This document shows, piece after piece, positions 3,026-17,818 of a stretch of DNA of 64,000 bases. Below the pieces are notes generated by a model. The model had not been told where the DNA came from. It was given only the letters and a program-made list of their open reading frames with translations, and did not search any database. A program made the translations under genes and the position numbers. Positions within the stretch are counted from its first letter, which is position 1; every line of letters starts with the position of its first letter. Source of the stretch: Planctomycetota bacterium (GTDB taxonomy: Bacteria > Planctomycetota > UBA1135 > GCA-002686595). The stretch is taken from the NCBI GenBank assembly GCA_016220085.1, contig JACRIN010000002.1:60362-124361 (forward strand). Reading direction: 5' to 3'.

Positions 3026-5764
3026 TCACTGCGCGAAGCGCAGCTCGAGCTCGGCGGCGGGCGTGCGTTCGGCGGTGAGCGCGAGCTCGAGCCCCGGGCC
3101 GGGCGTCACCGCGCGCTCCCATTCGCCTTTCGGCTGCGTGCGCCGCGCGACGACTGTCATCGCGACTCCGCGCGGCAACGCGAGCTCGAAGCGGCCCTGC
3201 GCGTCGCACCAAGCGGTGTCGACAGCGCGGCCGAGCTCGTCGCGCGCCTCGACTCGCGCGTGCGCGAGCGCGGCGCCGTCGACATCGAGCACACGACCGC
3301 GCACGACTTCGACCGCGGCGAGGTCGAGCACGACGCCGTCCATCGGCGCATGCACCGTGCGCGTCGTCGGAGCGAGCTCGCGCTCCGCCGGAGGCGTCGC
3401 ACGCAGCTCCCACACGTCCGCGGTCAGCCCCGCGAGCTCGAACGAGCCGTCGCGCTCGGACTGCGTGCTGCGCGTGTCGTCCGGCGCGCGCGTCGCGGCG
3501 ATCGTCGCGCCTTCGACGGGCACCCCGGCGGGATCGCGGACCGTGCCGCGCACGACGGCGCCGGCGGGAGCGAAGAGCTCGAGCTCGACCCGCTCGCCGA
3601 CGGCGAGGTCGAACTCCGCGCTCGCGCGTTCGCGCGACGCGGCGGTCGCCGTGCCGACCCACCACGCGCCTTCGGGCAGGTCCTCGAACACGAAGCGTCC
3701 GACCTCGTCGGTGCGTGTGCGCGCGAACGCGCGGCCGGCGGCCCAGCGGCTCGGCTCGACGCTCGCGCTGCGCGTCCCGCGAGGTCCGAGATCGAGCAGG
3801 ACGAGCTCGATCTTCCCGCGCGGAGCCCGTCCTTCGCCGAGCACGCGCCCGGTCGTGGTCGAGCCCGGCGCGAGTTGCACGCGGCCGAGGTCGACGAGCT
3901 CGAGTTCGCGCTCGTTCGGCGGGAACGAGACGTCGCGCGGCGCCCGACCGGCGTGCCACACGAGCAACGAGTGCTGGAGATCGGGCCGCAAGCCGTCGAG
4001 CTGGAACACGCCGTTCGCGTCGGTGCGTCCCGACACGCGATCGAACTCGTGCCGAGCGCCGATCCAGACGTCGGCGACCGCAGCGACCGACGCGTAGGGG
4101 AGCGGCGAGCCGTCGACGTCGAGCACCGCGCCTTCAGCACGCCGTCCTCGTTCGAGAGCGAGCTCGAGCACCAAGCCCTCGCGCGGCAGCGGTTCGATCG
4201 CGATGCGGCGCGTCACGTGCTGCGCTTCGCGCACACGCAGTTGGACGCGGTCGAGCGCCGCGGGAACCGCCAGCGAGAACTCCCCGCGGTCGTCGGTGAG
4301 CGCGCTCGTTCCCGCGTCGGGCTCGAGCGAGACCTCGGCGTCGGAGAGCGGCGCGCGCGAGACCGCGTCGAGGACGCGTCCGCGCACGCTCGCGGTTCTG
4401 TGCAGCGTCAGGTCGAGCGTGCGGCGCTCGCCGGCGGCGAGCTCGACCGAACAGGTCGCGTGCGCGCCGCGCGCGTCGAACGCATCGACGCGGTAGGTGC
4501 CCGGCGCGAGGCCGGTCACGCGCCAACGGCCGTCGTCCTCGGAGCTCGTCATCGTCCGCGAACCGTCGGCGGCGCGCACGCGCACGTCGACGCGGCCGAG
4601 CGCCATCCCGCCGAGCTTGGTTCCCCCGGGTTCGGTTCCGCCGAGCTCGAGTCCGCCGAGCTCGAGTCCATCCGCACCGAGCGTGCGGCCGACGAGTTCC
4701 GCTCCGCGCGGCAGGTGCACGACGAGCTCTTCCGTCGGAGCGGCCGCGAGCGCGGCGCGGGCCGCGCCGAAGTCGACCGCTCGGACGTCGAGCGCGCTCG
4801 AGCCGGCGAAGCGCTTCGCGATCCGGAAGCGGCCGTGCGCGTCGCTCCGCGTCTCCTCGAGCACCGTCGGCTCCAGCTGGAGCGGCGGATCGAAGCGGCC
4901 GAGCCGCGCGCGCGCGTCCGCGACGAGCCGCACGACGGCGTCGGCGATCGGCGCGCCGTTCTCGTCCTGCACGCGGCCGGTCCACGCGGAGTCGCCGATC
5001 GTCGAAGGCTCGCGTGCGACCCGTCCCGCGGGGGCATCCGAGCGCGCGCTCGCGCCGACCGGCGCCGCGACTTCGGAGCTCGACGTCACGACCGCCGGGA
5101 ACGCCGCGGTGCTCGGTGCGCCCCGGAAAGCGCCGTTCGCCATCGCGAACGCCAGACCGACGCCGATCAGCAGCACGAAGCCAGCGCCGACGAGCCACGC
5201 GGCCGGCGCGAGGGTGCGCGCGCGTTCGCTCGCTGCGAACGCCGCGAGCCCGGTGAGCCACGAGTCGCGATCCTTCTCGTGCTCGCGATCGAGCCGCGCG
5301 CGCAGTTGGGCAAGCCCGCGCCTCAAGCGCGTGTTCACGGTGCGCACCGGCACTCCCTGACGCCGCGCGATCTCGCGAGGCGGCAGCTCGTCGAGGTACC
5401 GCAGCAGCAGCGCGCCGCGGTAGGGCTCATCGAGCGCGAGCACGGCGGCGACGAGCTCGCGATGCAACGCCGCGCGCGCACACACTTCCGCGGACGAGTC
5501 GATCGCTTCCGGTTTCGCCGCCGTCTCCTCGCGGGCCGTGCGCCGTGCGTTGCCCCGCCGCGCGCGGCGGACGAAGTTGCGCAGCACGCGCGCGAACCAC
5601 GGCTCGAGCGGCCGACTGGTGTCCGGACGCGCGCGCAGGAACGCGAGCCACGTCTCCTGGACCAAGTCCTCGGCGAGGTGCGGATCGGAGACCAGCTCGT
5701 GCGCGAGCCGGCGCACCCAACCGATCTGCTCCGCCAGTCGATCCGCTTCGAGGTCTCCGGTCAT
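3026..5764 (-). CDS. ECF sigma factor fused to membrane anchor and carboxypeptidase-regulatory-like domains
   Basis: 912 residues. Residues about 10-75 are sigma region 2 (HLAEDLVQETWLAFLRA, then PWFARVLRNFVRR), and 100-160 are region 4 with the helix-turn-helix LPPREIARRQGVPVRTVNTR. A single membrane segment follows at about 186-209 (WLVGAGFVLLIGVGLAFAM). The remaining 700 residues should lie outside the membrane and hold at least six units of the carboxypeptidase-regulatory-like type, each starting with a pattern like VRGRVLDxxGxPLxxAxV and ending in DxxGxFxL. The ATG at 5764 is preceded by GGAAGGA. ECF factors of planctomycetes often carry C-terminal membrane extensions, so the outer part may sense something and control the tethered sigma domain. 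No separate anti-sigma gene is adjacent. Fusion is read directly; the sensing role is inferred. Confidence 0.9.
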   Translation of the reverse strand: MTGDLEADRLAEQIGWVRRLAHELVSDPHLAEDLVQETWLAFLRARPDTSRPLEPWFARVLRNFVRRARRGNARRTAREETAAKPEAIDSSAEVCARAALHRELVAAVLALDEPYRGALLLRYLDELPPREIARRQGVPVRTVNTRLRRGLAQLRARLDREHEKDRDSWLTGLAAFAASERARTLAPAAWLVGAGFVLLIGVGLAFAMANGAFRGAPSTAAFPAVVTSSSEVAAPVGASARSDAPAGRVAREPSTIGDSAWTGRVQDENGAPIADAVVRLVADARARLGRFDPPLQLEPTVLEETRSDAHGRFRIAKRFAGSSALDVRAVDFGAARAALAAAPTEELVVHLPRGAELVGRTLGADGLELGGLELGGTEPGGTKLGGMALGRVDVRVRAADGSRTMTSSEDDGRWRVTGLAPGTYRVDAFDARGAHATCSVELAAGERRTLDLTLHRTASVRGRVLDAVSRAPLSDAEVSLEPDAGTSALTDDRGEFSLAVPAALDRVQLRVREAQHVTRRIAIEPLPREGLVLELALERGRRAEGAVLDVDGSPLPYASVAAVADVWIGARHEFDRVSGRTDANGVFQLDGLRPDLQHSLLVWHAGRAPRDVSFPPNERELELVDLGRVQLAPGSTTTGRVLGEGRAPRGKIELVLLDLGPRGTRSASVEPSRWAAGRAFARTRTDEVGRFVFEDLPEGAWWVGTATAASRERASAEFDLAVGERVELELFAPAGAVVRGTVRDPAGVPVEGATIAATRAPDDTRSTQSERDGSFELAGLTADVWELRATPPAERELAPTTRTVHAPMDGVVLDLAAVEVVRGRVLDVDGAALAHARVEARDELGRAVDTAWCDAQGRFELALPRGVAMTVVARRTQPKGEWERAVTPGPGLELALTAERTPAAELELRFAQ

Positions 5765-6006
5765 GTGCGTCCTTCCAGTCTCCCTCACACCGAGGGCGAC
5801 CGGAATGACTCAAACCGGAAGCGTTCTCGACGCGAGCGACGAACCGTCGACCGGCGGGTGCCGCGCGCGCTCCTCCGCACGCCGGAAACTCGCGATCCGC
5901 GCTTCGAATCCGGCGGGGAGCTCGCTCCCCAGCGGCGTGCCCAGCGGCGCGCGCCGCGGCGCGAGCCGGTCGTGTGAGCAGCAGTCGACGAGCGCAGGAG
6001 CCGCGG

Positions 6007-7224: not shown

Positions 7225-7231
7225 GGCTGCC

Positions 7232-7238
7232 TACAGTA
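7232..7238. promoter_or_regulatory. Candidate bidirectional -10 element
   Basis: TACAGTA reads TACAGT on the plus strand and TACTGT on the minus strand. It lies 6 bases before the GTG at 7244 and 8 bases before the divergent GTG at 7224. Only 19 bases separate the two start codons and neither has a Shine-Dalgarno sequence, so both genes may be leaderless and share this element. Confidence 0.45.
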
Positions 7239-7243
7239 ACAAC

Positions 7244-8335
7244 GTGGTTCGGAGTGTCCCGCTCGCCCTGATCGCGCCGATCCTCGTGTCGCTCGCCGGA
7301 TGCGGGGAGGTTCGCGACGTCGAGATCGGGCGCTCGGCCGTCGGCGCGCGGCTCTCGGCGCGGCTGGACCGCGGCACGCCGACGTCCGTCTGGACCCAGC
7401 GCCATCCGGACGGTCGGGTCGAATGGACCGGCGCGTTCGAGGACGGTCGCAAGCAGGGCGAATGGCGGAGCTTCCGTTCCGACGGCGTGCCGCTGACGAC
7501 GTCACATTGGAAGGCGGATCGCGAGCACGGCACGTGGACGGAATACCACCCGAACGGCGCGCGAGCGGTCGAGGGCGAGTACGTCGACGGCCTGCGCGAA
7601 GGCGAGTGGCATGCGTGGCGCACCGACGGCGGCGAGAGTGCCGTCGTGCACTACGTCGCGGGCAAGTTGCACGGCGCGGTGCGCGAGCTCGCGCCCGACG
7701 GCGTCGTGTTGCTCGCCGGCGAGTACGTCGCAGACGTCGCGCAGGGGGCGTGGACGAGCTCGTACGCGAGCGGCACGCCGCGCCAAGCGACGCGCTACGT
7801 CGACGGGCTGCTCGATGGACCCACCGAGCAGTGGTACGAGTCCGGCGCGCTCCAAGCGCGCGGTTCGTATCGGCGAGGCGAGCGCGACGGTGATTGGACG
7901 GAGTTCCATCGCAACGGCGAGCGCAGGCTCGCGCAGACTTGGAAAGACGGGAAGCTCGACGGTCCGGCGACCGAGTACCACGACGACGGATCGCTCGCCG
8001 CGCAAGGTGAATGGCGCGACGGCCGCAGGTCGGGCCTGTGGCGGACTTGGCGCGCGGGCGGCGCGCTGGACAGCGAGGCGTCGTACGTCGACGGCGAACT
8101 GCACGGTGCGTGCACGCGCTACTTCGCCGACGGCAGCTCGTGGTGGAGTGCGCAGTACGTGAAGGGCAAGCGCACGGGCGCGTTCGAGCAGCGCTGGGAG
8201 TCCGGCGCCGCGCGGGCGAAGGGCGCGTACGTCAACGGGCTGCGCGAGGGGCGCTGGACGTACCACACGATCGAAGGCGCGCTCGACGCCGCGAAGAGCG
8301 GTGTGTACCGGCACGACGTCCGCGTCGGCGAGTGA
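7244..8335 (+). CDS. MORN-like repeat lipoprotein (YwqK-type repeats)
   Basis: 363 residues. The GTG at 7244 gives a signal peptide with a perfect lipobox (VSLAGC, Cys 20 or so). The rest is built of about a dozen repeats of 21-24 residues with the pattern YxDGLREGEWxxxxxxGxxxxxGxY, for example YVDGLREGEWHAW, YVDGLLDGPTEQWYESG and YVNGLREGRWTYH. This is the MORN_2 / YwqK antitoxin-like repeat, which makes an extended beta surface. In bacteria these proteins are usually surface lipoproteins of unknown binding partner; the toxin-antitoxin name of the family is not evidence of such a role here, as no toxin gene is adjacent. It is transcribed away from the SGNH hydrolase gene. Confidence 0.88.
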   Translation: MVRSVPLALIAPILVSLAGCGEVRDVEIGRSAVGARLSARLDRGTPTSVWTQRHPDGRVEWTGAFEDGRKQGEWRSFRSDGVPLTTSHWKADREHGTWTEYHPNGARAVEGEYVDGLREGEWHAWRTDGGESAVVHYVAGKLHGAVRELAPDGVVLLAGEYVADVAQGAWTSSYASGTPRQATRYVDGLLDGPTEQWYESGALQARGSYRRGERDGDWTEFHRNGERRLAQTWKDGKLDGPATEYHDDGSLAAQGEWRDGRRSGLWRTWRAGGALDSEASYVDGELHGACTRYFADGSSWWSAQYVKGKRTGAFEQRWESGAARAKGAYVNGLREGRWTYHTIEGALDAAKSGVYRHDVRVGE

Positions 8336-8544: not shown

Positions 8545-8562
8545 ATGCGCATAAAGATTCGA
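8545..8562 (+). promoter_or_regulatory. ARG-box-like operator
   Basis: The A/T-rich stretch ATGCGCATAAAGATTCGA stands out in GC-rich surroundings and resembles half-sites TGnnn and ATTCA of ArgR operators, though with 6 rather than 4 central bases. It sits directly upstream of the argR promoter candidate, where autoregulation of an arginine operon would act. Confidence 0.35.
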
Positions 8563-8592
8563 TTGAACAAGAGCGCCGCGACTGATTATTCT
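8563..8592 (+). promoter_or_regulatory. Candidate promoter of the arginine operon
   Basis: TTGAAC at 8563-8568 and TATTCT at 8587-8592 are separated by 18 bases. The GTG start at 8599 comes 6 bases after the -10, where transcription would be expected to begin, and no ribosome binding site is present. This suggests a leaderless argR transcript. Confidence 0.5.
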
Positions 8593-8598
8593 CTCCCC

Positions 8599-9036
8599 GT
8601 GACTCAGACCGCAGAACGCCGCGCCGCCATCCGGGCGCTCCTCGCCGAGGGCGAGGTCAAGAACCAGTACGAGCTCGAGGTCCGCCTCAAGAAGCGCGGC
8701 TACCACGCGAGCCAACCGGTGCTCTCGCGCGACCTGCGCGCGCTCGGCGTCGCGAAGCAAGCGGGCGTCTACCAACTCGTCGAGAGCGAGCGCATCACGC
8801 CGCTGACGGCGCTGAAGAGCCTGCTGCGCGCGGCCGAGGTCGTGCCGCACTTCGTGATGGTGCACTGCGAGCCCGGCGCCGCCAGCGCGGTCGCGCGCGC
8901 GCTCGAGGCCGAGGAAGTTCCCGGCCTGATCGGCTCCGTCGCCGGCGACGACACCGTGCTCGTCGCCGTTTCCTCCGCCGCCGTCGGACAGCGCGTCCGT
9001 CGTCGCGTCGCGGAGCTCCTGCAGTCCAATTCCTGA
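8599..9036 (+). CDS. argR: Arginine repressor ArgR
   Basis: 145 residues. The N-terminal half is a winged helix (AERRAAIRALLAEGEVKNQ, then SQPVLSRDLRALGV recognition helix), and the C-terminal half carries the arginine-binding and hexamer motif GSVAGDDTVLVAV. Length matches the family. ArgR hexamers bind L-arginine and repress biosynthesis genes, and this gene opens the arginine cluster, with argG starting 26 bases downstream after AAGGAG. GTG at 8599 is preferred over the upstream ATG at 8545 because family members begin a few residues before the winged helix and because the promoter candidate places the transcript start at 8599. The regulator and its targets are very probably one transcription unit, giving feedback by the end product. 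Confidence 0.9.
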   Translation: MTQTAERRAAIRALLAEGEVKNQYELEVRLKKRGYHASQPVLSRDLRALGVAKQAGVYQLVESERITPLTALKSLLRAAEVVPHFVMVHCEPGAASAVARALEAEEVPGLIGSVAGDDTVLVAVSSAAVGQRVRRRVAELLQSNS

Positions 9037-9062
9037 CGCCCCCAACTCCGAAGGAGCTTTCG

Positions 9063-10271
9063 ATGCGCGTCCTGTTGGCCTATTCCGGCGGTCTCGACAC
9101 GTCTTGGTTGATCGCGTACCTCACCCGTGAAAAGCACGCGGAGGTGACGGCGTTGACCGTCGATTGCGGCGGCTTCAGCGAAGCCGAGAAGGACGAGATG
9201 CGTTCGCGCGCCGCCGTGCTCGGCGCGGTCGAGCATCGGTTCGTCGACGCGCGCGCGGAGATGTTCGAGCGCGTGCTGCGCTGGCTCGTCGCCGCCAACG
9301 TCCGCCGCGGAGGCGTCTATCCGTTGTCGGTCGGCGCCGAGCGCGGCCTCCAAGCGGAAATCCTCGCGCGCGTCGGACGCGACGAGGGCTTCGACGCGGT
9401 CAGCCACGGCTGCACCGCGGCGGGCAACGATCAAGTGCGCTTCGAGGCCGCGCTCGCGACGCTCGCGCCCAAGCTCCAGGTGCTCGCCCCGGTGCGCGAC
9501 CTCGCGCCGAGCCGCGACGACCAACGCGCGTACCTGACGGCTCGAGGTCTGCCGGTGCCGCCGTCGGGCGGCAAGTACTCGGTCAACGCGGGGCTGTGGG
9601 GGCTGACGATCGGCGGCGGCGAGCTGCACACGTCGAACGAGGCGCTCGCGGAAGACGCGTGGCAATGGACGAAGAACGGCTCCGGTCGCCGGCACATCCG
9701 CATCGGCTTCGAGGCGGGCGTTCCGTGCTCGCTCGACGGTCGTGAACTCGATCCGGTGACGTTGATCGAGACGTTGAACCGCGAGGGCGGCGCGCTCGGC
9801 ATCGGCCGCGGCTATCACCTCGGCGACACCGTGCTCGGCATCAAGGGACGCATCGCGTTCGAGGCGCCGGCGGCGGAGCTGCTGCTCGCCGCGCACCGCG
9901 AGCTCGAGAAGCTCGTGCTGACCGAGGACCAGCGCTTCTGGAAGGACCACCTCGGCGAGGTGTACGGCAAGCGCCTGCACCAAGGGCTCTTCCACGATCC
10001 GTTCCAGCGCGACCTCGAAGCGTTCTTCGCTTCGTCGCAAGCGCGCGTCACGGGCACGGCTTCGGTCGAGCTCGCGAACGCTCGCTCGCTCGTCGACGGC
10101 GTCGAATCGCCGTTCAGTCTGCTCGCCGCGTCCGACGCCAAGTACGGCGAGCGGGCGGGCTCGAACTCGGATCCGCGCGGAGCGCTGGGGCTCGCGCGCG
10201 TGCTCGCGGAACCGGCGCGCTTGTTCAAGCGCGCGGGCGACGCACAGGCCGCTTTGGAGGTGACGCGATGA
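9063..10271 (+). CDS. argG: Argininosuccinate synthase
   Basis: 402 residues. Joins citrulline and aspartate with ATP to make argininosuccinate in the cytoplasm. The N-terminal ATP loop is YSGGLDTS at residues 7-14; the substrate loop reads TAAGNDQVRFE (usual GxGNDQxRF), and KYSVNAGLWGLTIGG corresponds to the conserved citrulline/aspartate segment. The TVLGIKGRIAFEAPA stretch is also typical. The motif spelling (GGFSEAEK, YPLSVGAER) resembles the bacteroidete-type ArgG more than the enterobacterial type, from memory. The start has AAGGAG 6 bases upstream. Its stop overlaps the start of the next gene (ATGA), beginning a chain of coupled genes. Confidence 0.96.
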   Translation: MRVLLAYSGGLDTSWLIAYLTREKHAEVTALTVDCGGFSEAEKDEMRSRAAVLGAVEHRFVDARAEMFERVLRWLVAANVRRGGVYPLSVGAERGLQAEILARVGRDEGFDAVSHGCTAAGNDQVRFEAALATLAPKLQVLAPVRDLAPSRDDQRAYLTARGLPVPPSGGKYSVNAGLWGLTIGGGELHTSNEALAEDAWQWTKNGSGRRHIRIGFEAGVPCSLDGRELDPVTLIETLNREGGALGIGRGYHLGDTVLGIKGRIAFEAPAAELLLAAHRELEKLVLTEDQRFWKDHLGEVYGKRLHQGLFHDPFQRDLEAFFASSQARVTGTASVELANARSLVDGVESPFSLLAASDAKYGERAGSNSDPRGALGLARVLAEPARLFKRAGDAQAALEVTR

Positions 10272-11335
10272 AACGCGTGATGCTCGACAAGATCGCTTCG
10301 GTCACTTTGCGACTGGAGCTCGACAAGAACGCCGTGCTCGGGGAGGAGATCCCGGCGGAAGCGGGTACCGTCGTCGCCGCGCGCATCCTCAACGCGAAGA
10401 CCACGTACAACACGCTCGAGGACGTGCACGGCCGCATGGTCGCGCTGCACCCGGGCGACGTGATCGCGGGCGCGCTCGGCCACCGCGACGCGCTGTACGG
10501 CTACTCCGGCCGCGTGCCGAAGAAGGTCGCGGTCGGCGACGAGATCCAACTGCTCAACATCGGCGGCGTGATCGGCTCGGGCGCGAAGGCGACGCCGGGC
10601 CTCGGCGAGCCGTTCCGCATCGAAGTGCTCGGCTCGATCCTGCGCTTCCCGTACCTCGGGACTCGCGTCGGCGTGCCCGCGCAGGTCCAACAAGCGGCGC
10701 TGCCGCATCGTCCGCTGCCGGCGAAGGTTCCGCCGGTGGTCGCGCTGGTCGGCACCTGCATGGACGCGGGCAAGACCACGGCGGCGAGCGTGATCATCGG
10801 CGAGCTCTCGCGCGCGGGCCTGCGGATCGCCGCGGGCAAGCTGACGGGCGTTTCGCTGCGTCGCGACGTGCTCCAGATGCACGACTGCGGGGCGGACGCG
10901 GTCTCGATCTTCACCGACTTCGGCGTGGTGACGACCAACGAGCAAAACGTGCTCGCGGCCGCGTACTCGGCGATCGCGCACCTCTCGGAGTCCGAGCCCG
11001 ACCTGCTCGTGCTCGAGATGGGCGACGGCCTGCTCGGCACCTACGGCGTGCACACGTTGCTCTCGGATCCCGCGTTGCGCGCGACGCTGCAAGCGATCGT
11101 GCTCTGCGCGCAAGACCCGGTCGGCGCGTGGGGCGGCGCGCAGCTGCTCGCGGATCGCTACGGGCTCGCGGTCGACGTGTTCTCGGGTCGCGTCACCGAC
11201 ACGCCGGTCGGCTCGCGCTTCTGCAACGAGAAGCTCGGCGTCCCGGCGTGGAACGCGCTGCGCGACGGCAACAAGCTCGCGCAGACGATCAAGGCGAAGC
11301 TCTTCAGCGGCGCTTCCGCCGAGGTGAACGCATGA
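10268..11335 (+). CDS. DUF1611-family protein, candidate L-glutamate N-acyltransferase
   Basis: 355 residues. The N-terminal third (LDKNAVLGEEIPAEAGTVVA, HPGDVIAGALGHRD, GYSGRVPKKV) is the DUF1611 N-terminal domain. A P-loop follows at residues 162-170 (GTCMDAGKTT), then GKLTGVSLRRD, SIFTDFG and LVLEMGDGLLGTYG, all usual for the C-terminal P-loop domain. As I recall, the family member DgcN is an N-acetyltransferase of D-glutamate catabolism. Here the gene sits inside a complete arginine operon between argG and argC, overlapping both by ATGA, and the operon has no argA, argJ or GNAT gene. The simplest reading is that it makes N-acetyl- or N-succinyl-L-glutamate, the first intermediate. The family call is firm; the reaction is inference from context. 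The racemase partner DgcA is absent. Confidence 0.85.
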   Translation: MKRVMLDKIASVTLRLELDKNAVLGEEIPAEAGTVVAARILNAKTTYNTLEDVHGRMVALHPGDVIAGALGHRDALYGYSGRVPKKVAVGDEIQLLNIGGVIGSGAKATPGLGEPFRIEVLGSILRFPYLGTRVGVPAQVQQAALPHRPLPAKVPPVVALVGTCMDAGKTTAASVIIGELSRAGLRIAAGKLTGVSLRRDVLQMHDCGADAVSIFTDFGVVTTNEQNVLAAAYSAIAHLSESEPDLLVLEMGDGLLGTYGVHTLLSDPALRATLQAIVLCAQDPVGAWGGAQLLADRYGLAVDVFSGRVTDTPVGSRFCNEKLGVPAWNALRDGNKLAQTIKAKLFSGASAEVNA

Positions 11336-12426
11336 CGACGGTCGCGACCCACGAGAAGTCGCGCGTCCAAACCGTGCCGCTGTGGGTCTTCGGATCGAGC
11401 GGCATGCTCGGCGGCGAGCTCCTGCGTTTGCTGGAGCAGCACCCGGCGTTCGTGCCGACCGCGGTGTCGCGCAAGGCGACGCCTCTCGCGGAGAGCCAGC
11501 CGCACGTGCGCTCCGGCGTCGCGTCGGCGTCGGTCGAGGACGCCGAGCGCGCGCTCGGCGCCGCGTTGGAGCGCGGGCCGGCCGCGGTCGCGCTTTCGCT
11601 GCCGCACGGTGAGTCGGGCGAACTCCTCAAGCGTCTGCGCGCGAGCCTCGGCTCGCGCCTCGACCAGCTCGTCGTCGTCGACCTCGCGGCGGACTTCCGG
11701 CTCGCGGATCCCGAGCTCTATCGCGCGACGTACGGCCACGCGCATCCGTGCGTCGACGAGCTCGCGGACTTCGCGTACGGCTTGCCCGAGTTCCACCGCG
11801 CGCGCATCGTCGAGTCGCGCCGCGCGGCGGCCGCCGGTTGCTTCGCGACCGCGATGCAGCTCGCCGTCGTGCCCGCGGCGCGCGCGGGGATCCTCGACGG
11901 CGCCGCGCCGTGGATGCTGCACGGCATCACGGGCTCCAGCGGCTCGGGCGTCGAGCCCAAGCCCGGCACGCACCATCCGTATCGCCACGGCAACCTGTGG
12001 GCGTACTCGCTCGACGGCCACCGGCACGAAGCGGAGCTCGCCCAGGCGATCCAACCGCTTCGCGCGAAGCTCCACTTCGTCGCGCACTCCGGTCCGTTCG
12101 CGCGCGGCATCCATCTGACGTGCGCGCTGCCGCTCGCGAAGTCGCTGTCGACCGCCGACGTCCGCGCGATCTACTCGCAGACGTTCGCGGGCGAGCCTTT
12201 CGTCGACGTGCTCCCGCTCGAAGGCGGCGTGCCCGACCTCCGTCGCGTCGCGGGCTCGAACCGCGCCGCGCTCGGCGTGAACGTGCGAGGCGAGGTGCTC
12301 ACGGTCCTTTGCACGCTCGACAACCTCGTCAAGGGCGGCGCCGGTCAAGCGCTGCAGTGCCTCAACCTGATGTTCGGCTTTCCGGAGACGTGGGGACTGC
12401 CTCGTTCCGGGCTTGGAGTTGCGTGA
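11332..12426 (+). CDS. argC: N-acyl-gamma-glutamyl-phosphate reductase
   Basis: 364 residues. Reduces N-acylglutamyl phosphate to the semialdehyde with NADPH. The Rossmann start is VFGSSGMLGGELLRLL, and the catalytic Cys lies in AAAAGCFATAMQ (usual NPGCYPT). ITGSSGSGVEPK, the catalytic His segment HSGPFARGI, and NLVKGGAGQALQCLN near the end all match ArgC. ATG at 11332 overlaps the DUF1611 stop by four bases, and an N-terminal extension of about 15 residues precedes the fold. It belongs to the coupled arginine operon. Whether the substrate carries acetyl or succinyl cannot be told from this protein. Confidence 0.95.
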   Translation: MTTVATHEKSRVQTVPLWVFGSSGMLGGELLRLLEQHPAFVPTAVSRKATPLAESQPHVRSGVASASVEDAERALGAALERGPAAVALSLPHGESGELLKRLRASLGSRLDQLVVVDLAADFRLADPELYRATYGHAHPCVDELADFAYGLPEFHRARIVESRRAAAAGCFATAMQLAVVPAARAGILDGAAPWMLHGITGSSGSGVEPKPGTHHPYRHGNLWAYSLDGHRHEAELAQAIQPLRAKLHFVAHSGPFARGIHLTCALPLAKSLSTADVRAIYSQTFAGEPFVDVLPLEGGVPDLRRVAGSNRAALGVNVRGEVLTVLCTLDNLVKGGAGQALQCLNLMFGFPETWGLPRSGLGVA

Positions 12427-13565
12427 TGAAGCTCGTGGAATTCAAGGCCTACAAGCGTCTCTCGATTTCGGTCGTCTCGGCGGAAGGTTGCGAGCTCGTG
12501 CTCGCCGACGGACGGCGCGTGCTCGATCTGTACGGCGGTCACTGCGTCAACACGCTCGGCGCCGGCGACGAAGAGCTCGGCGAGACGCTCCAGCGCCAGT
12601 GGAAGCAGTTGTCGTTCGCGACCAACCTGCTCGACCACGCGCCGCGGATCGACTTCATGCACGCGTTCGCGCCGAACCTGCCGGACGGTGAGTGGCAGTT
12701 CTTCTGCTCGAACAGCGGTGCGGAGGCGAACGAGAACGCGCTCAAGCTCGCGCTCACGGCGACCAAGCGTTCGAAAGTCGTCTACTTCAACGGCGCGTTC
12801 CACGGCCGGACGGCGGCCGCCGCGGCGGTCAGCGACACCAAGCTCGCCGCGTTCCCGCACGCGCCGTTCACAGCGATCAAGCTGCCGTGGGGCGACATCG
12901 ACGCAGCGCGCGCCGCGATCGACGGCACCGTCGGCGCGGTGATCCTCGAGCCGATCCAATCGCTTGCGGGCGTCGTCGAACCGACGCCCGGCTTCCTCGA
13001 AGCGTTGCGCGCGGCGTGCGACGCCGTCGGCGCGCTGTTGATCTTCGACGAGGTGCAAACCGGCAACGGACGCCTCGGCGAGCCGTGGGCTTCGCAGCAC
13101 TTCGACGTGATCCCCGACCTCTTCACGACCGCGAAGGGCGCGGCCGCGGGCTTGCCGATCGGCCTGACGGTGCTGACCAGCGACGTCGCCGCGCGCGTGC
13201 CGGGGAACCTGCTCGGCTCGACGTTCGGCGGCGGGCCGTTGGTGCTCGCGGCGGCGGCGGAGACGGCGCGTCGCATCGCGGCGCCGGGCTTCCTCGAGCG
13301 CGTGCGCGCGACGTCGTCGGCGCTCGCTCGCGCTTCGATGCGCGGACCGATCCAGTCGGTGCGCGGCGCGGGGCTCCTGCTCGGTCTCGTGCTCGAGGAA
13401 GGGCACAGCGCGGCGGTCGTGCGCGACCGACTGCTCGATCAAGGCGTGCTGGTCGGCACGAGCGACGATCCGCGCGTCCTGCGCCTCTCGCCTTCGCTGA
13501 CGCTCGAACCGTACCAAGCCGCGCGGCTCGAAGCGGCGCTCGACGCCCTGACGGTGTCGGCGTGA
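12426..13565 (+). CDS. argD: N-acylornithine aminotransferase
   Basis: 379 residues. Class III PLP transaminase that converts N-acylglutamate semialdehyde to N-acylornithine using glutamate. Visible are the N-terminal DLYGGHCVNTLGAG segment, the PLP-phosphate site NSGAEANENALKLA, the strand AVILEPIQSLAGVV, the cofactor Asp in LLIFDEVQTGNGRLG, and the Schiff-base Lys in TTAKGAAAGLPIG. The order fits acetylornithine or succinylornithine transaminases. Its ATG shares one base with the argC stop (TGATG), so coupling is tight. Such enzymes can also serve lysine biosynthesis, but context makes arginine its main job. Confidence 0.93.
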   Translation: MKLVEFKAYKRLSISVVSAEGCELVLADGRRVLDLYGGHCVNTLGAGDEELGETLQRQWKQLSFATNLLDHAPRIDFMHAFAPNLPDGEWQFFCSNSGAEANENALKLALTATKRSKVVYFNGAFHGRTAAAAAVSDTKLAAFPHAPFTAIKLPWGDIDAARAAIDGTVGAVILEPIQSLAGVVEPTPGFLEALRAACDAVGALLIFDEVQTGNGRLGEPWASQHFDVIPDLFTTAKGAAAGLPIGLTVLTSDVAARVPGNLLGSTFGGGPLVLAAAAETARRIAAPGFLERVRATSSALARASMRGPIQSVRGAGLLLGLVLEEGHSAAVVRDRLLDQGVLVGTSDDPRVLRLSPSLTLEPYQAARLEAALDALTVSA

Positions 13566-14617
13566 ACGGCTTCTACCACCTCGGCGAGCTCTCGACCTCG
13601 ACGGTCGAGCGGCTCGCGCATCGCGCGCTCGAGTTCCGCCGCGGCGTCGAGCCGGTGCGGTTCGTCGGGCGCGGGCTCGGTCTCTTCTTCTTGAGCCCGT
13701 CGCTGCGCACGCAGGCGTCGTTCCAACGCGCGGCGGCGAAGCTCGGCCTCGATCTGGTGCAGCTGCAAGGCGGCGGCAACGGAGTGTGGCAACTCGAGCT
13801 CGCCGACGGCGCGGTGATGAACGGAGCGAGCGTCGAACACATCCGCGAGGCCGCGGCGGTGCTCGGGCGTTTCGTCGACGTGCTCGCGATCCGCGCGTTC
13901 TCGGGCGGCCAGGATCTCGCGCTCGACCTGTCGGATCCGATCGTCAACGGCTTCCGGCGCTTCGCCGGCGTGCCGATCGTCAACATGGAGAGCGCGCTGT
14001 GGCATCCGTGCCAGGCGCTCGCCGATTGGACGACGCTCGAGATGCTCGGCGTCGAGCGTCGCGCGAAGTTCGTGCTGACGTGGGCGAACCATCCGAAGCC
14101 CTTGCCGCACGCGGTGCCCAACTCGACGCTCGCGATGGCGCTCCAGCGCGGCATGGACGTCGTGCTCGCGCGCCCGGACGGCTACGACTTGCATCCGCAC
14201 GCCATGGCGGAAGCGAAACGCCTCGCCGCGGAGTCGGGCGGACGCCTGAGCGTCACCAACGATCGCAACGCGGTCGAAGGCGCGGCGGTCGTGTACGCGA
14301 AGTCGTGGGGCTCGCTCGAAGCGTGGGGCGATCTCGCGAAGGAGCAGCGCATGCGCGCGTCGCTCGCGAATTGGTGCGTCGACGGCGAGCTGATGCGTCG
14401 CGCGGGCCCGAAAGCTCGCTTCATGCACTGCCTGCCGGTGCGCCGCAACGTCGTCGTGAAGGACGAAGTGCTCGACGGACCGACGTCCGTCGTGATCGAT
14501 CAAGCCGAGAACCGCTTGCACGCGCAGACCGCGTTGCTCGAGCGGCTCTTCTTGGAACTGGAAACGCAATCGAAAGCTAGGAAGAGCTCCCTGGAGCTCG
14601 AGGAGGTTCGCCCGTGA
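13562..14617 (+). CDS. argF': N-acylornithine carbamoyltransferase (AOTC/SOTC type)
   Basis: 351 residues. Transfers carbamoyl phosphate to N-acylornithine rather than to free ornithine. The phosphate loop is SPSLRTQASF, followed by ESALWHPCQALADW, the family-specific LTWANHPKPLPHAVPNS, VVYAKSWG and MHCLPVRRN. ESALxHP and PLPxAVPNS are closer to the bacteroidete succinylornithine enzyme than to the Xanthomonas acetylornithine enzyme, as I remember them. At the position that discriminates the two (Glu92 in Xanthomonas, Pro90 in Bacteroides) this protein has Val91 in NGASVEH. That favours a succinylated substrate. GTG at 13562 overlaps the argD stop as GTGA. The product must be deacylated before argG, which fits the M20 gene downstream. 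Confidence 0.9.
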   Translation: MNGFYHLGELSTSTVERLAHRALEFRRGVEPVRFVGRGLGLFFLSPSLRTQASFQRAAAKLGLDLVQLQGGGNGVWQLELADGAVMNGASVEHIREAAAVLGRFVDVLAIRAFSGGQDLALDLSDPIVNGFRRFAGVPIVNMESALWHPCQALADWTTLEMLGVERRAKFVLTWANHPKPLPHAVPNSTLAMALQRGMDVVLARPDGYDLHPHAMAEAKRLAAESGGRLSVTNDRNAVEGAAVVYAKSWGSLEAWGDLAKEQRMRASLANWCVDGELMRRAGPKARFMHCLPVRRNVVVKDEVLDGPTSVVIDQAENRLHAQTALLERLFLELETQSKARKSSLELEEVRP

Positions 14618-15495
14618 CCGATCTCGTCAAAGCCGCCCCGCACATCCGCATGCACCGCGGTCAGATCTTCGTGATCAAGGCCGGCGGAGGCACGATCGCC
14701 CGCACCGCGTCGATGCGCGCGTTCGCGCGCCAGGTCGCGGTCGTGCAAGCGCTCGGCTCGCGCATCGTCGTCGTCCACGGCGGCGGGCCCCAGACCGACG
14801 CGCTCCAACGCTTGTTCGGAGAGGAGCCGCGCATGGTCGACGGCCGTCGCGTCACCAGCCCGCTCGCGTTGCGCGCGCTGCGGCTCGCGACCGGCGGCGA
14901 GGTCAACAGCGACCTGACCGCCGCGCTGATCGCCGAGGGAGTGCCGGCGCTCGGCCTCGGCGGCGGGGGCGTGTTGACCGCCGATCGCCGTCCGCCGGTG
15001 GTCACCAGCGAAGGCATGGTCGATTACGGCGAGGTCGGCGACCTCAAGGGAGTCGACGCCGCGGCGCTGAACGCGCTGCTCGACGCCGGTCGCGTTCCGG
15101 TGGTGTCGCCGCCCGCCGGCGACAGCCGGGGCAACTTCCTGAACGTCAACGCGGACCTCGCGGCGGCGCAGATCGCGCTCGCGCTCGGCGCGGCGAAGCT
15201 GGTGCTCGTCACCGGCGCGCCGGGCGTCCTGCGCGATCCGAAGGACATGGGTTCGTTGGTCTCGGCGCTCTCGCTGCCGGCGCTGGTCGAGCTCGAGAAG
15301 TCCGGCGCGCTGCAAGGCGGCATGAAGGTCAAGGCGGCGGCGATCAAGAAGGCGCTCGAAGGCGGCGTCGGTCGCGTGCACGTCGTGTCGGGCTCGGACC
15401 CGGAAGCGCTCTTGAACGAGCTCTACACGAACCACGGCGCCGGCACGCTGGTCACCAGGGAGCCCGAACGGGCGCCGCAAGCGGTGACGGTGTGA
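14614..15495 (+). CDS. argB: N-acylglutamate kinase
   Basis: 293 residues. Phosphorylates N-acylglutamate with ATP in the second pathway step. It has the amino-acid-kinase pattern: FVIKAGGGTI at the N-terminus, VVVHGGGPQTD, GEVNSDLTAALI, NVNADLAAAQIALAL, VLVTGAPGVL, and LQGGMKVKAAAIKKAL near the C-terminus. The usual first motif KxGG is kept as KAGG. GTG at 14614 overlaps the argF' stop (GTGA) and has AGGAGG at 14601-14606, inside the preceding gene, giving it its own strong ribosome binding site. ArgB is the usual arginine feedback target; this protein lacks an obvious N-terminal extension of the kind seen in arginine-sensitive hexamers, so repression by ArgR may be the main control. Confidence 0.94.
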   Translation: MTDLVKAAPHIRMHRGQIFVIKAGGGTIARTASMRAFARQVAVVQALGSRIVVVHGGGPQTDALQRLFGEEPRMVDGRRVTSPLALRALRLATGGEVNSDLTAALIAEGVPALGLGGGGVLTADRRPPVVTSEGMVDYGEVGDLKGVDAAALNALLDAGRVPVVSPPAGDSRGNFLNVNADLAAAQIALALGAAKLVLVTGAPGVLRDPKDMGSLVSALSLPALVELEKSGALQGGMKVKAAAIKKALEGGVGRVHVVSGSDPEALLNELYTNHGAGTLVTREPERAPQAVTV

Positions 15496-16583
15496 CGCAA
15501 CCCTGGCTGGGCTGGCTTTCCGAGCTGGTCGCGATCCCGAGCATCTCGGGCGACGAAGCTCGCGCCGCGGAGTGGGCCGTCGCGCTGTTTCGATCGAGGA
15601 AGCTCGACGTCGAGCGCGTCGGCAACTCCGTGATCGCGCGCGTCGTGCGCGGCCGCGGGCCGACGTTGCTGCTGCATTCGCACCTCGACACCGTTCCGAT
15701 CGGCGAAGGCTGGACGCGCGATCCGTACGCGGCGCAGTGGGACGACGGCAAGCTCGTCGGCCGCGGCGCGAACGACGCGAAAGCGTCGGTGGTCGCGATG
15801 GCGGCGGCGTTGATGGCGTTCGCCGAGGACTGCGACGTGCACGGCGAGGCGATCGTCGCGTACACCGCGTGCGAGGAGACGACCAACGCGGGGATGGCCG
15901 ACGTGCTCGCGAAGATCGGCCGCCCCGACGGCGGTTTCTGCGGCGAGCCGACCGGCTTGGAGATCGTCCGCGCGCAGTCCGGCCTCGCGGTGCTCGTCGC
16001 CGAGTGGCACGGGCGATCGTGTCACGCCGCGCACGTCGCGCGCGTGCCGCACGAGAACGCGCTCCACGCGGCGTGCCGCGAACTCGCGGCGACCGCGCCG
16101 TATCTGACGCTCGCGGGCGAGCATCCGTTGCTCGGCAAGAGCACGACGGTTTCGACGGTGCTGCGCGCGGGCGAGCGCTCGAACGTCGTGCCCGATCGCG
16201 CCGAGGCGGTGTTCGACGCGCGGCTATCGCCGTTGCACCGCGCGAGCGACGTGGTGAACGTGCTCGCCGAACGCATGCCGAACGCGAGCCTGCGGATCCG
16301 TTCCGAGCGGCTGAAGCCGGTCGAGACGCAGGAGGACCATCCGTTGGTGCGCGCCGCGCTCGCCGCGGCGAACAAGCCGCACGCGATCGGTTCGAACACG
16401 ATGTCGGACATGGCGCTGCTCGCGGGCGTGCCCGCGGTCAAGGTCGGCCCGGGCGAGACGGCGCGCTCGCACACGCCGAACGAGTTCGTCCTGGCGAGCG
16501 AACTCGACGCGGGCGTCGCATTCTACACGCGAGCTCTGCCCGCGGCGCTCGAAGCGCTCGCCGCGCAAGGAGTGCACGCATGA
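15492..16583 (+). CDS. argE: M20 peptidase-family N-acylcitrulline deacylase
   Basis: 363 residues. Zinc-dependent M20 deacylase. Metal and catalytic motifs: HSHLDTVP (His and Asp), GRGANDAK (bridging Asp), YTACEETTNAG (catalytic Glu and ligand Glu), GEPTGLEIV (ligand Glu), and the last His in GPGETARSHTPNEF. A dimerisation domain lies between, from about residue 165 to 280 (GRSCHAAHVAR). With an acylornithine carbamoyltransferase upstream in the pathway, the substrate should be N-acylcitrulline, released as citrulline for ArgG. M20 enzymes of this branch also include succinyl-diaminopimelate desuccinylase, so a succinyl substrate is quite possible. GTGA overlap with argB. Confidence 0.9.
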   Translation: MTQPWLGWLSELVAIPSISGDEARAAEWAVALFRSRKLDVERVGNSVIARVVRGRGPTLLLHSHLDTVPIGEGWTRDPYAAQWDDGKLVGRGANDAKASVVAMAAALMAFAEDCDVHGEAIVAYTACEETTNAGMADVLAKIGRPDGGFCGEPTGLEIVRAQSGLAVLVAEWHGRSCHAAHVARVPHENALHAACRELAATAPYLTLAGEHPLLGKSTTVSTVLRAGERSNVVPDRAEAVFDARLSPLHRASDVVNVLAERMPNASLRIRSERLKPVETQEDHPLVRAALAAANKPHAIGSNTMSDMALLAGVPAVKVGPGETARSHTPNEFVLASELDAGVAFYTRALPAALEALAAQGVHA

Positions 16584-17818
16584 GCGAGCTCCAGAAGCCG
16601 ATCTGGGATCGCGGCGAAGCGATCGATCCCGACATGCTGCGCTTCACGATCGGCGACGATTGGTTGCAGGACCGCCGGCTGGTCGAGCACGACATCAAGG
16701 GCTCGTTGGTGCACGCCGAGGGGCTCGCGCTGGTCGGCTTGATCCAGCCGCAGGAGTTCCAAGCGCTGCGCGACGGCCTCGCGAAGCTGCGCGAGGGCTT
16801 CCGCAAGGGCGAATGGACGGTCGAGGAAGGCGACGAGGACGTTCACTCGGCGGTCGAGCGACGGTTGATCGCGCTGGTCGGCGACGTCGGCAAGAAGCTG
16901 CACACCGCGCGCAGCCGCAACGAGCAGGTCGCGCTCGACGTCCGCCTCTGGCTGCGCGAGGCGAGCGGCGACGTCGCGCGTTCGCTCGAGCGTCTGATCG
17001 CCGCCGCGCACGCGCAGCGCACCGCGCGCGGCGAGGTCGCGCTGCCGGGCTACACGCACCTGCGTCGCGGGATGCCGTCGACGCTCGGCGAATGGCTCGG
17101 CGCGCACGCGAAGGCGTTCGAAGAGGATCTCGCGGACTTGCGCGCGGCGTCGCGACGCATCCGGGAGTGTCCGCTCGGCACCGGCGCGGGCTACGGGTTG
17201 CCGGTCGAGCTCGATCGCGACTTCACGGCGCGCGCTCTCGGTTTCGAGCGGCCGGAGAGGCCCGTGACGTTCACGCAGCACGCGCGGGGACGCGCGGAGC
17301 TCGCGTACCTGACCGCGCTCGAGGGCGTCGCGCTCGACCTCGACAAGCTCGCGCACGATCTGTGGCTCTTCTCGAGCGAGGAATTCGGCTTCGTGCGGCT
17401 GCCGGTCGCGTTGACGACCGGCTCGTCGCTGATGCCGCAGAAGCGCAACCCCGATCTGATCGAGCTCATCCGCGCGCACGCGCGCCAAGTCGTCGCCGAT
17501 CGCGCCGCGTTGCTCGACGTGCTGCGCGACTTGCCGTCGGGCTATCACCGCGACTTCCAGCTGCTCAAGCCGCCGCTCTTCCGCGCGCACGACCGCGTCG
17601 CGGCGATGTTGCCCTTGACCGCCAAGCTGGTCGCGACGCTGGACTTCGACGAGGAGAAGCTCGCCGCAGCGGCGTCCGATCCGAAGCTGCGCGCGACGGA
17701 ACGCGCGCTCGAAAAGGCGAAGAGCGGCGTGCCGTTCCGCGACGCGTACCGCGAGGAGAGCCTCGAGGCATCGAAGTCCGGCGAGGATCCCGCGCGCGGC
17801 GGCGGCCGCTGCGGTTGA
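16580..17818 (+). CDS. argH: Argininosuccinate lyase
   Basis: 412 residues. Splits argininosuccinate into arginine and fumarate, the last step. Family motifs are present in order: EDVHSAVERRL, KLHTARSRNEQVALD, GYTHLRRGMPST (usual GYTHLQ), the signature loop GSSLMPQKRNPD, and YHRDFQLLK. The catalytic Ser lies in the GSSLMPQK loop. Slightly short compared with the usual 450-470 residues, with a reduced N-terminus. ATG at 16580 overlaps the argE stop, closing the chain of coupled genes. No obvious intrinsic terminator follows, and the next 472 bases hold no gene. Confidence 0.96.
   Translation: MSELQKPIWDRGEAIDPDMLRFTIGDDWLQDRRLVEHDIKGSLVHAEGLALVGLIQPQEFQALRDGLAKLREGFRKGEWTVEEGDEDVHSAVERRLIALVGDVGKKLHTARSRNEQVALDVRLWLREASGDVARSLERLIAAAHAQRTARGEVALPGYTHLRRGMPSTLGEWLGAHAKAFEEDLADLRAASRRIRECPLGTGAGYGLPVELDRDFTARALGFERPERPVTFTQHARGRAELAYLTALEGVALDLDKLAHDLWLFSSEEFGFVRLPVALTTGSSLMPQKRNPDLIELIRAHARQVVADRAALLDVLRDLPSGYHRDFQLLKPPLFRAHDRVAAMLPLTAKLVATLDFDEEKLAAAASDPKLRATERALEKAKSGVPFRDAYREESLEASKSGEDPARGGGRCG

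What the first reader, a model, noticed from the sequence alone, without database searches (positions are those of the whole stretch)
8545..17818. A complete arginine operon in which a DUF1611 gene replaces the missing N-acylglutamate synthase
The cluster holds every step from N-acylglutamate to arginine (argB, argC, argD, argF', M20 argE, argG, argH) and its repressor argR, but no argA, no argJ and no GNAT gene. The only extra gene is a DUF1611 protein between argG and argC, overlapping both neighbours by ATGA. Family knowledge from memory is that DgcN, a DUF1611 protein, is an N-acetyltransferase acting on glutamate. So DUF1611 probably acylates L-glutamate as the first arginine step here, a role I do not know to have been described.
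Basis: partly seen in the sequence, partly recalled or inferred. Interest (0 to 1): 0.9.

Follow-up and report, generated by a model that had tools for sequence, protein, structure and literature searches.

The report
Unrecognised first enzyme of arginine synthesis
A gene of unknown function inside a complete bacterial arginine operon, found beside arginine genes in several bacterial phyla and almost never in the same genome as the usual enzyme ArgJ, likely encodes an unrecognised enzyme that would put a protecting (predicted succinyl) group on glutamate, the first step of making arginine.

Summary
The operon is real: argR, argG, X, argC, argD, argF', argB, M20 argE, argH, with X overlapping argG and argC by ATGA. 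X (355 aa) is the only extra gene. By Pfam's cut-off it is not DUF1611 (13.2 against 25 bits): it has an all-beta N-domain without a PDB match found, and a P-loop C-domain distantly related to DUF1611/DgcN. All 51 X loci of one scan hold two or more arginine genes. Of 236 argC-bearing planctomycete genomes, 91 have X, 117 ArgJ, 1 both (45 expected), 29 neither. Classical ArgA passes its cut-off in 4 of 294, none with X. The operon's carbamoyltransferase has all three residues published for the succinyl-ornithine enzyme, so the protecting group is predicted to be succinyl. Best reading: X is a non-GNAT N-succinylglutamate synthase; its acyl donor (succinyl-CoA, or succinate plus ATP) is open. 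Nothing has been assayed, 13 GNAT genes of unknown substrate lie elsewhere in the 86%-complete genome, and two known alternatives (ArgA2, LysW/ArgX) were not searched directly.

The parts
8545..9036 (+). argR, arginine repressor
   Evidence: Pfam Arg_repressor N and C domains; TIGR01529 87 bits, below its cut-off of 130
9063..10271 (+). argG, argininosuccinate synthase
   Evidence: TIGR00032 over cut-off
10268..11335 (+). X: predicted N-acyl (succinyl) glutamate synthase, 355 aa, all-beta N-domain plus P-loop C-domain
   Evidence: linked to arg genes in 51 of 51 loci; near mutual exclusion with ArgJ; AlphaFold2 model pLDDT 87
10712..11320 (+). P-loop domain of X (about residues 149-351)
10751..10780 (+). 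Walker A of X, GTCMDAGKTT (residues 162-171)
   Evidence: motif present in 47 of 47 X proteins; G162, G168, K169, T170 invariant
10829..10852 (+). second-lysine motif of X, AAGKLTGV (K191)
   Evidence: K.TGV in 47 of 47 X proteins; DUF1611 has TGQ[TS][GC] in 18 of 18
11332..12426 (+). argC, N-acyl-gamma-glutamyl-phosphate reductase
   Evidence: TIGR01850 over cut-off
12423..13565 (+). argD, N-acylornithine aminotransferase
   Evidence: Pfam Aminotran_3; best NCBIfam rows are acetylornithine transaminases, below cut-off
13562..14617 (+). argF', N-acylornithine carbamoyltransferase, predicted succinyl type
   Evidence: NF003384 over cut-off; diagnostic residues V/P/V at X. campestris positions 92/185/302 (codons 13832, 14105, 14453)
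14614..15495 (+). argB, N-acylglutamate kinase
   Evidence: TIGR00761 over cut-off
15492..16583 (+). argE-like M20 deacylase
   Evidence: Pfam Peptidase_M20 and M20_dimer; ArgE/DapE family TIGR01910 below cut-off
16580..17818 (+). argH, argininosuccinate lyase
   Evidence: TIGR00838 over cut-off

Best explanation
The 355-residue P-loop protein X encoded between argG and argC likely carries out the first step of arginine synthesis here, and is predicted to put a succinyl group from succinyl-CoA on the amino group of L-glutamate in place of ArgA or ArgJ. The product would then be phosphorylated (ArgB), reduced (ArgC), transaminated (ArgD), carbamoylated as N-succinylornithine (ArgF'), freed of succinate by the M20 deacylase, and finished by ArgG and ArgH. 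Shown by calls: the operon, the linkage of X to arginine genes, the near mutual exclusion of X and ArgJ, the lack of ArgJ and classical ArgA in the genome searched, the succinyl-type residues of ArgF', the P-loop motif. Predicted: the fold. Inferred: the reaction of X (by elimination, and from the distantly related D-glutamate N-acetyltransferase DgcN), the succinyl group (from ArgF'), the CoA donor (from DgcN alone).
For: Every other step of the pathway has a gene in the operon. X with two or more arginine genes in 51 of 51 loci of the genome-contig scan, argC in 47 and argG in 47 (L049 and L064 are pieces of one isolate; record titles name Planctomycetota, Proteobacteria, Elusimicrobia, Acidobacteria, Patescibacteria); 10 of 12 further distinct planctomycete X loci too. 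Of 294 planctomycete genomes, 93 have strong X (E 2.5e-70 or better) and 122 ArgJ (E 1e-10 or better), 1 both, 38.6 expected. Of the 236 with ArgC: 91 X, 117 ArgJ, 1 both, 45.1 expected; 91 of 93 X genomes have ArgC. By family label (92): 36 with X, 34 with ArgJ, 3 shared, 13.3 expected, P 2e-6. Inside the window's family: X in G000, G030, G268, G293, ArgJ in G140, G155, G183, G240, G259. ArgJ in 0 of 12 X genomes from titles other than Planctomycetota. Full ArgA over cut-off in 4 of 294, all with ArgJ. ArgF' at X loci: 33 of 38 distinct sequences carry the full published succinyl set, 0 of 38 have Glu at position 92 (rule in PMC4581275, passages). Only DUF1611/DgcN aligns with X over the whole P-loop domain by HMM (176 columns, probability 88, E 3e-6), and DgcN also acylates the amino group of glutamate, the D form (EC name in PMC11747546, passage).
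Against: No assay. 13 GNAT genes of unknown substrate elsewhere in the genome; in Corynebacterium glutamicum the synthase proved to be a GNAT outside the arg regulon (PMC3827942, passages). Genome 86% complete. ArgA2 (BT3761/Cabys_1732 type) and LysW/ArgX were not searched directly. One genome, G044, has X and a full ArgJ; a second, G165, has a partial ArgJ match just over Pfam's cut-off (32.9 bits), dropped from the 122. 29 of 236 argC genomes have neither X nor ArgJ. Two X loci, L156 and L162, show no arg gene in the stretch fetched, and six weak X-like loci, L143-L148, none either. Fisher values ignore relatedness. The donor CoA rests on a distant relative; K191 of X is Gln in DUF1611.
Confidence: 0.55

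Rival explanations
1. X does carry out the first step but as an ATP-dependent ligase: it would activate succinate (or acetate) as an acyl phosphate at the P-loop and pass the acyl group to L-glutamate, like ATP-using P-loop synthetases.
Against: The relative with the longest HMM alignment, DUF1611/DgcN, is named an acyltransferase (its use of acetyl-CoA is recalled, primary paper not held). The BioD and PyrG alignments cover 35 and 27 columns only.
Confidence: 0.25
2. A GNAT elsewhere in the genome makes the N-acylglutamate, and X is an accessory or regulatory P-loop protein of the operon.
For: 13 PF00583 matches in the genome; precedent in Corynebacterium (PMC3827942, passages); Bacteroidetes use a GNAT, ArgA2, with succinylated intermediates (PMC9026213 and PMC7311316, passages).
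Against: None of the 13 reaches the cut-off of a synthase family in NCBIfam; the best such row is Cg3035-type at 21 bits against 280. An accessory role does not explain why X and ArgJ exclude each other. A GNAT found beside an argF' in G135 occurs in 8 of 294 genomes and not in this one.
Confidence: 0.12
3. X acylates L-glutamate but with acetyl, so the pathway is the acetyl-ornithine-carbamoyltransferase pathway known from Xanthomonas.
For: NCBIfam names ArgF' N-acetylornithine carbamoyltransferase; DgcN is an acetyltransferase by its EC name.
Against: Window ArgF' has V/P/V where the acetyl enzyme has E/N/K; 0 of 38 X-linked ArgF' have that Glu, while 4 X-less ArgF' copies (L130-L133) are E/N/K.
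Confidence: 0.1

Closest known systems
DgcN, D-glutamate N-acetyltransferase (DUF1611, PF07755; PDB 7xrj; 2g0t and 2obn are other DUF1611 structures)
   Different: Pfam cut-off not met; N-terminal domain different; Gln where X has K191; true DUF1611 proteins are a separate family in relatives (17 of 41 over cut-off, one matching 7xrj at E 5e-108); D-Glu catabolism (passages) rather than arginine synthesis
ArgJ, ornithine acetyltransferase / N-acetylglutamate synthase (PF01960)
   Same: provides the first step in the related genomes that lack X
   Different: unrelated protein; acetyl cycle instead of a linear route with M20 deacylase; absent here
ArgA2 / BT3761, GNAT N-succinylglutamate synthase of Bacteroidetes
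   Same: predicted same product, in operons with a succinyl-type ArgF' (PMC9026213, PMC7311316, passages)
   Different: GNAT protein; X has a P-loop and matches no GNAT model
ATP-using P-loop synthetases: dethiobiotin synthetase BioD, CTP synthase
   Different: no N-terminal all-beta domain; HMM match limited to 35 and 27 columns

Membership tests
DUF1611 / DgcN (PF07755) | Pfam gathering score | tested here: not met
   13.2 bits against 25; PF07755 0 matches in the whole genome
DUF1611 / DgcN (PF07755) | P-loop C-terminal domain of the same fold | tested here: inconclusive
DUF1611 / DgcN (PF07755) | DUF1611 N-terminal domain | tested here: not met
N-acetylglutamate synthase ArgA (TIGR01890), ArgJ (PF01960), GNAT | model match of X | tested here: not met
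   X has no row for these in Pfam or NCBIfam
N-acylglutamate synthase (by function) | makes N-acyl-L-glutamate | not testable with these tools
   needs an assay
N-succinylornithine carbamoyltransferase (ArgF') | A/S/P/V/Q, P, V/I/E at X. campestris 92/185/302 (PMC4581275, passages) | tested here: met
   V/P/V in the window (after correcting its one-residue offset, 103)
P-loop NTPase | Walker A motif | tested here: met
   GTCMDAGKTT; 47 of 47 family members

The most novel reading that the evidence does not exclude
X is an ATP-dependent glutamate N-succinyl ligase: a P-loop synthetase with a second active-site lysine and a new all-beta substrate domain, opening arginine synthesis with chemistry known from no arginine pathway, in a family spread over Planctomycetota and several other phyla.
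Probability: 0.25. Interest if true: 0.88.

Novelty: new variant of a known kind. Interest (0 to 1): 0.76.

Why it matters
If true, about a third of the planctomycete genomes sampled (93 of 294), and members of other phyla, start arginine with an enzyme family now annotated 'hypothetical protein', so pathway predictors would call them deficient at this step. It would be a first-step enzyme that is neither ArgJ nor a GNAT, and would put succinylated arginine intermediates outside Bacteroidetes. It also hints at an older P-loop group that acylates glutamate (D-Glu by DgcN, L-Glu by X). The prediction is testable with one purified protein.

Tried and rejected
Rejected: calling X a DUF1611 protein. 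Rejected: a second arginine operon behind the genome's second argF'-like gene (G000:C5:15610-16599): no other arg gene within the 16 kb fetched (L096), and its diagnostic residues P/T/E do not fit the succinyl enzyme. Weakened: the idea that a GNAT fills the slot of X in X-less succinyl operons: the GNAT of L138 also occurs in X genomes (G067, G119, G165, G179, G225), in four of them beside an argF' copy on a contig other than that of X.

Led nowhere: X or its alignment against PDB sequences (chance rows only). Neighbours of the X-like paralogues (M20 peptidase and flavin reductase in L145; ABC exporter and M14 peptidase in L148) gave no clear function. No PDB match listed for the N-domain, which does not exclude one. 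PF13508 gave only loci already found with PF00583.

Not done: ArgA2 itself was not searched (no sequence at hand), nor LysW/ArgX, nor carAB; no tree of X was built; no structure-based residue mapping.

Corrections made on review: the first ArgF' count held three loci fetched twice (L098, L108, L109 equal L035, L024, L027) and set aside three X-locus copies; one search recounts 38 distinct ones. L149 equals L031. One search printed residues one position off; the right ones follow from the mutant rows and are used. In one search hhalign ignored the option for the template's match columns.

Papers: listings only; passages. No paper listed or passage seen proposes X or a P-loop enzyme for this step; the library lacks most subscription journals. 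DgcN biochemistry is recalled except where a passage is cited.
Full report
Observation. The window holds one run of nine + strand genes, argR-argG-X-argC-argD-argF'-argB-M20-argH, 8545-17818. Eight proteins match their Pfam families, X none; argG, argC, argF', argB and argH pass NCBIfam cut-offs. X overlaps argG and argC by ATGA. All steps from N-acylglutamate to arginine are present; the missing one is the first. The genome (5.55 Mb, 111 contigs, 86% complete) has no ArgJ match and no ArgA beyond the operon's argB. It has 13 GNAT (PF00583) matches, none on the window's contig. All 13 were scanned with NCBIfam (9, 4); none reaches a synthase cut-off.

Neighbourhood. The genome-contig scan returned 51 loci; with phmmer at 1e-8 all 51 hold at least two arg genes, argC and argG 47 each. 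Loci without argC end at the contig edge (L037, L049, L051) or read argR-X-argB (L031). L049 and L064 come from one isolate. Titles name Planctomycetota mostly, also Proteobacteria (L052-L056, L062), an alphaproteobacterium (L058), Elusimicrobia (L057), Acidobacteria (L061, L065) and Patescibacteria (L063). Of 12 further distinct X loci from the phylum search, 10 hold arg genes, L156 and L162 none in the stretch fetched; six weak X-like loci (L143-L148) hold none and are a related but different group.

Replacement of ArgJ. In 294 planctomycete genomes 103 match X, 93 strongly. ArgJ matches 124; I used 122, dropping G050 (E 5e-4) and G165 (partial, 32.9 bits, just over cut-off, an X genome). 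Both occur in G044 alone; 38.6 expected, Fisher P 1e-26. Of 236 genomes with ArgC, 91 have X, 117 ArgJ, 1 both (45.1 expected), 29 neither; of 58 without ArgC, 2 have X and 5 ArgJ. These P values ignore relatedness; counted by 92 family labels, 36 have X, 34 ArgJ, 3 both, 13.3 expected, P 2e-6. In the window's own family 4 genomes have X, 5 have ArgJ, 2 (G092, G196) neither. In G155 the ArgJ type has its own arg cluster with a far more distant carbamoyltransferase (L103). ArgJ is absent from 12 of 12 X genomes outside Planctomycetota by title (completeness not told). ArgA passes its cut-off in 4 of 294, all ArgJ genomes.

Which acyl group. A review states that Glu92, Asn185 and Lys302 of the Xanthomonas N-acetylornithine enzyme are A/S/P/V/Q, P and V/I/E in the N-succinylornithine enzyme (PMC4581275, passages); a change at the first site switches the preference (PMC7311316, passage). 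Window ArgF' has V, P, V. Of 38 distinct ArgF' at X loci, 33 carry the full set and 0 have Glu92; the others are A/P/K (2), I/P/E, A/A/E (L058, a canonical-like enzyme) and one truncated. Four ArgF' copies of X-less genomes (L130-L133) are E/N/K. So succinylated intermediates are predicted, as in Bacteroidetes, where the synthase is a GNAT (PMC9026213, PMC7311316, passages).

Mechanism. By elimination X is the glutamate N-acylating enzyme. That its P-loop domain is a distant relative of DgcN, which acylates D-glutamate, is independent support. The donor is open: CoA by analogy with DgcN, ATP plus succinate by analogy with BioD and CTP synthase and the conserved second lysine. I commit to succinyl-CoA as the slightly simpler reading and give the ligase reading one chance in four.

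Novelty. Searches in the open PMC library listed no paper proposing this family or a P-loop enzyme for this step. Reviewed synthase classes are ArgA, NAGS/K, ArgJ, S-, O-, H- and C-NAGS and LysW protection (PMC4490483, passages). The reaction is known and the enzyme family is not, hence 'new variant of a known kind'.

Noticed in passing
G000:C5:15610-16599 (locus L096:7443-8606): A second argF'-like carbamoyltransferase (NF003384 347 bits) with residues P/T/E at the diagnostic places and no arg gene within the 16 kb fetched; similar isolated copies occur in relatives with and without ArgJ.
   Followed up: partly
L138:9070-9669 and neighbours: A GNAT between an argF'-like gene and an M20 deacylase in G135; relatives in 8 of 294 genomes, several beside an argF' copy, which looks like another pathway with a carbamoyltransferase.
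   Followed up: partly
L143-L148: X-like paralogues (about 90-103 bits to X) sharing both domains, outside arg operons, in ArgJ genomes among others; near an M20 peptidase (L145) or an ABC exporter and M14 peptidase (L148).
   Followed up: partly
window 7230-8335: Upstream of argR an open frame with repeated motifs such as DGRKQGEWRSF and NGARAVEGEYVDGLREGEW, which look like MORN-type repeats (from memory, not scanned).
   Followed up: no
window 3026-5788 (minus strand): A 920-residue open frame that begins like an ECF sigma factor and continues in carboxypeptidase-regulatory-like repeats (from reading the translation, not scanned).
   Followed up: no
L149/L031 and L150 (genome G044): The only sampled genome with both strong X and full ArgJ; X sits in argR-X-argB, apart from the ArgJ contig (12.3 Mb assembly).
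   Followed up: partly
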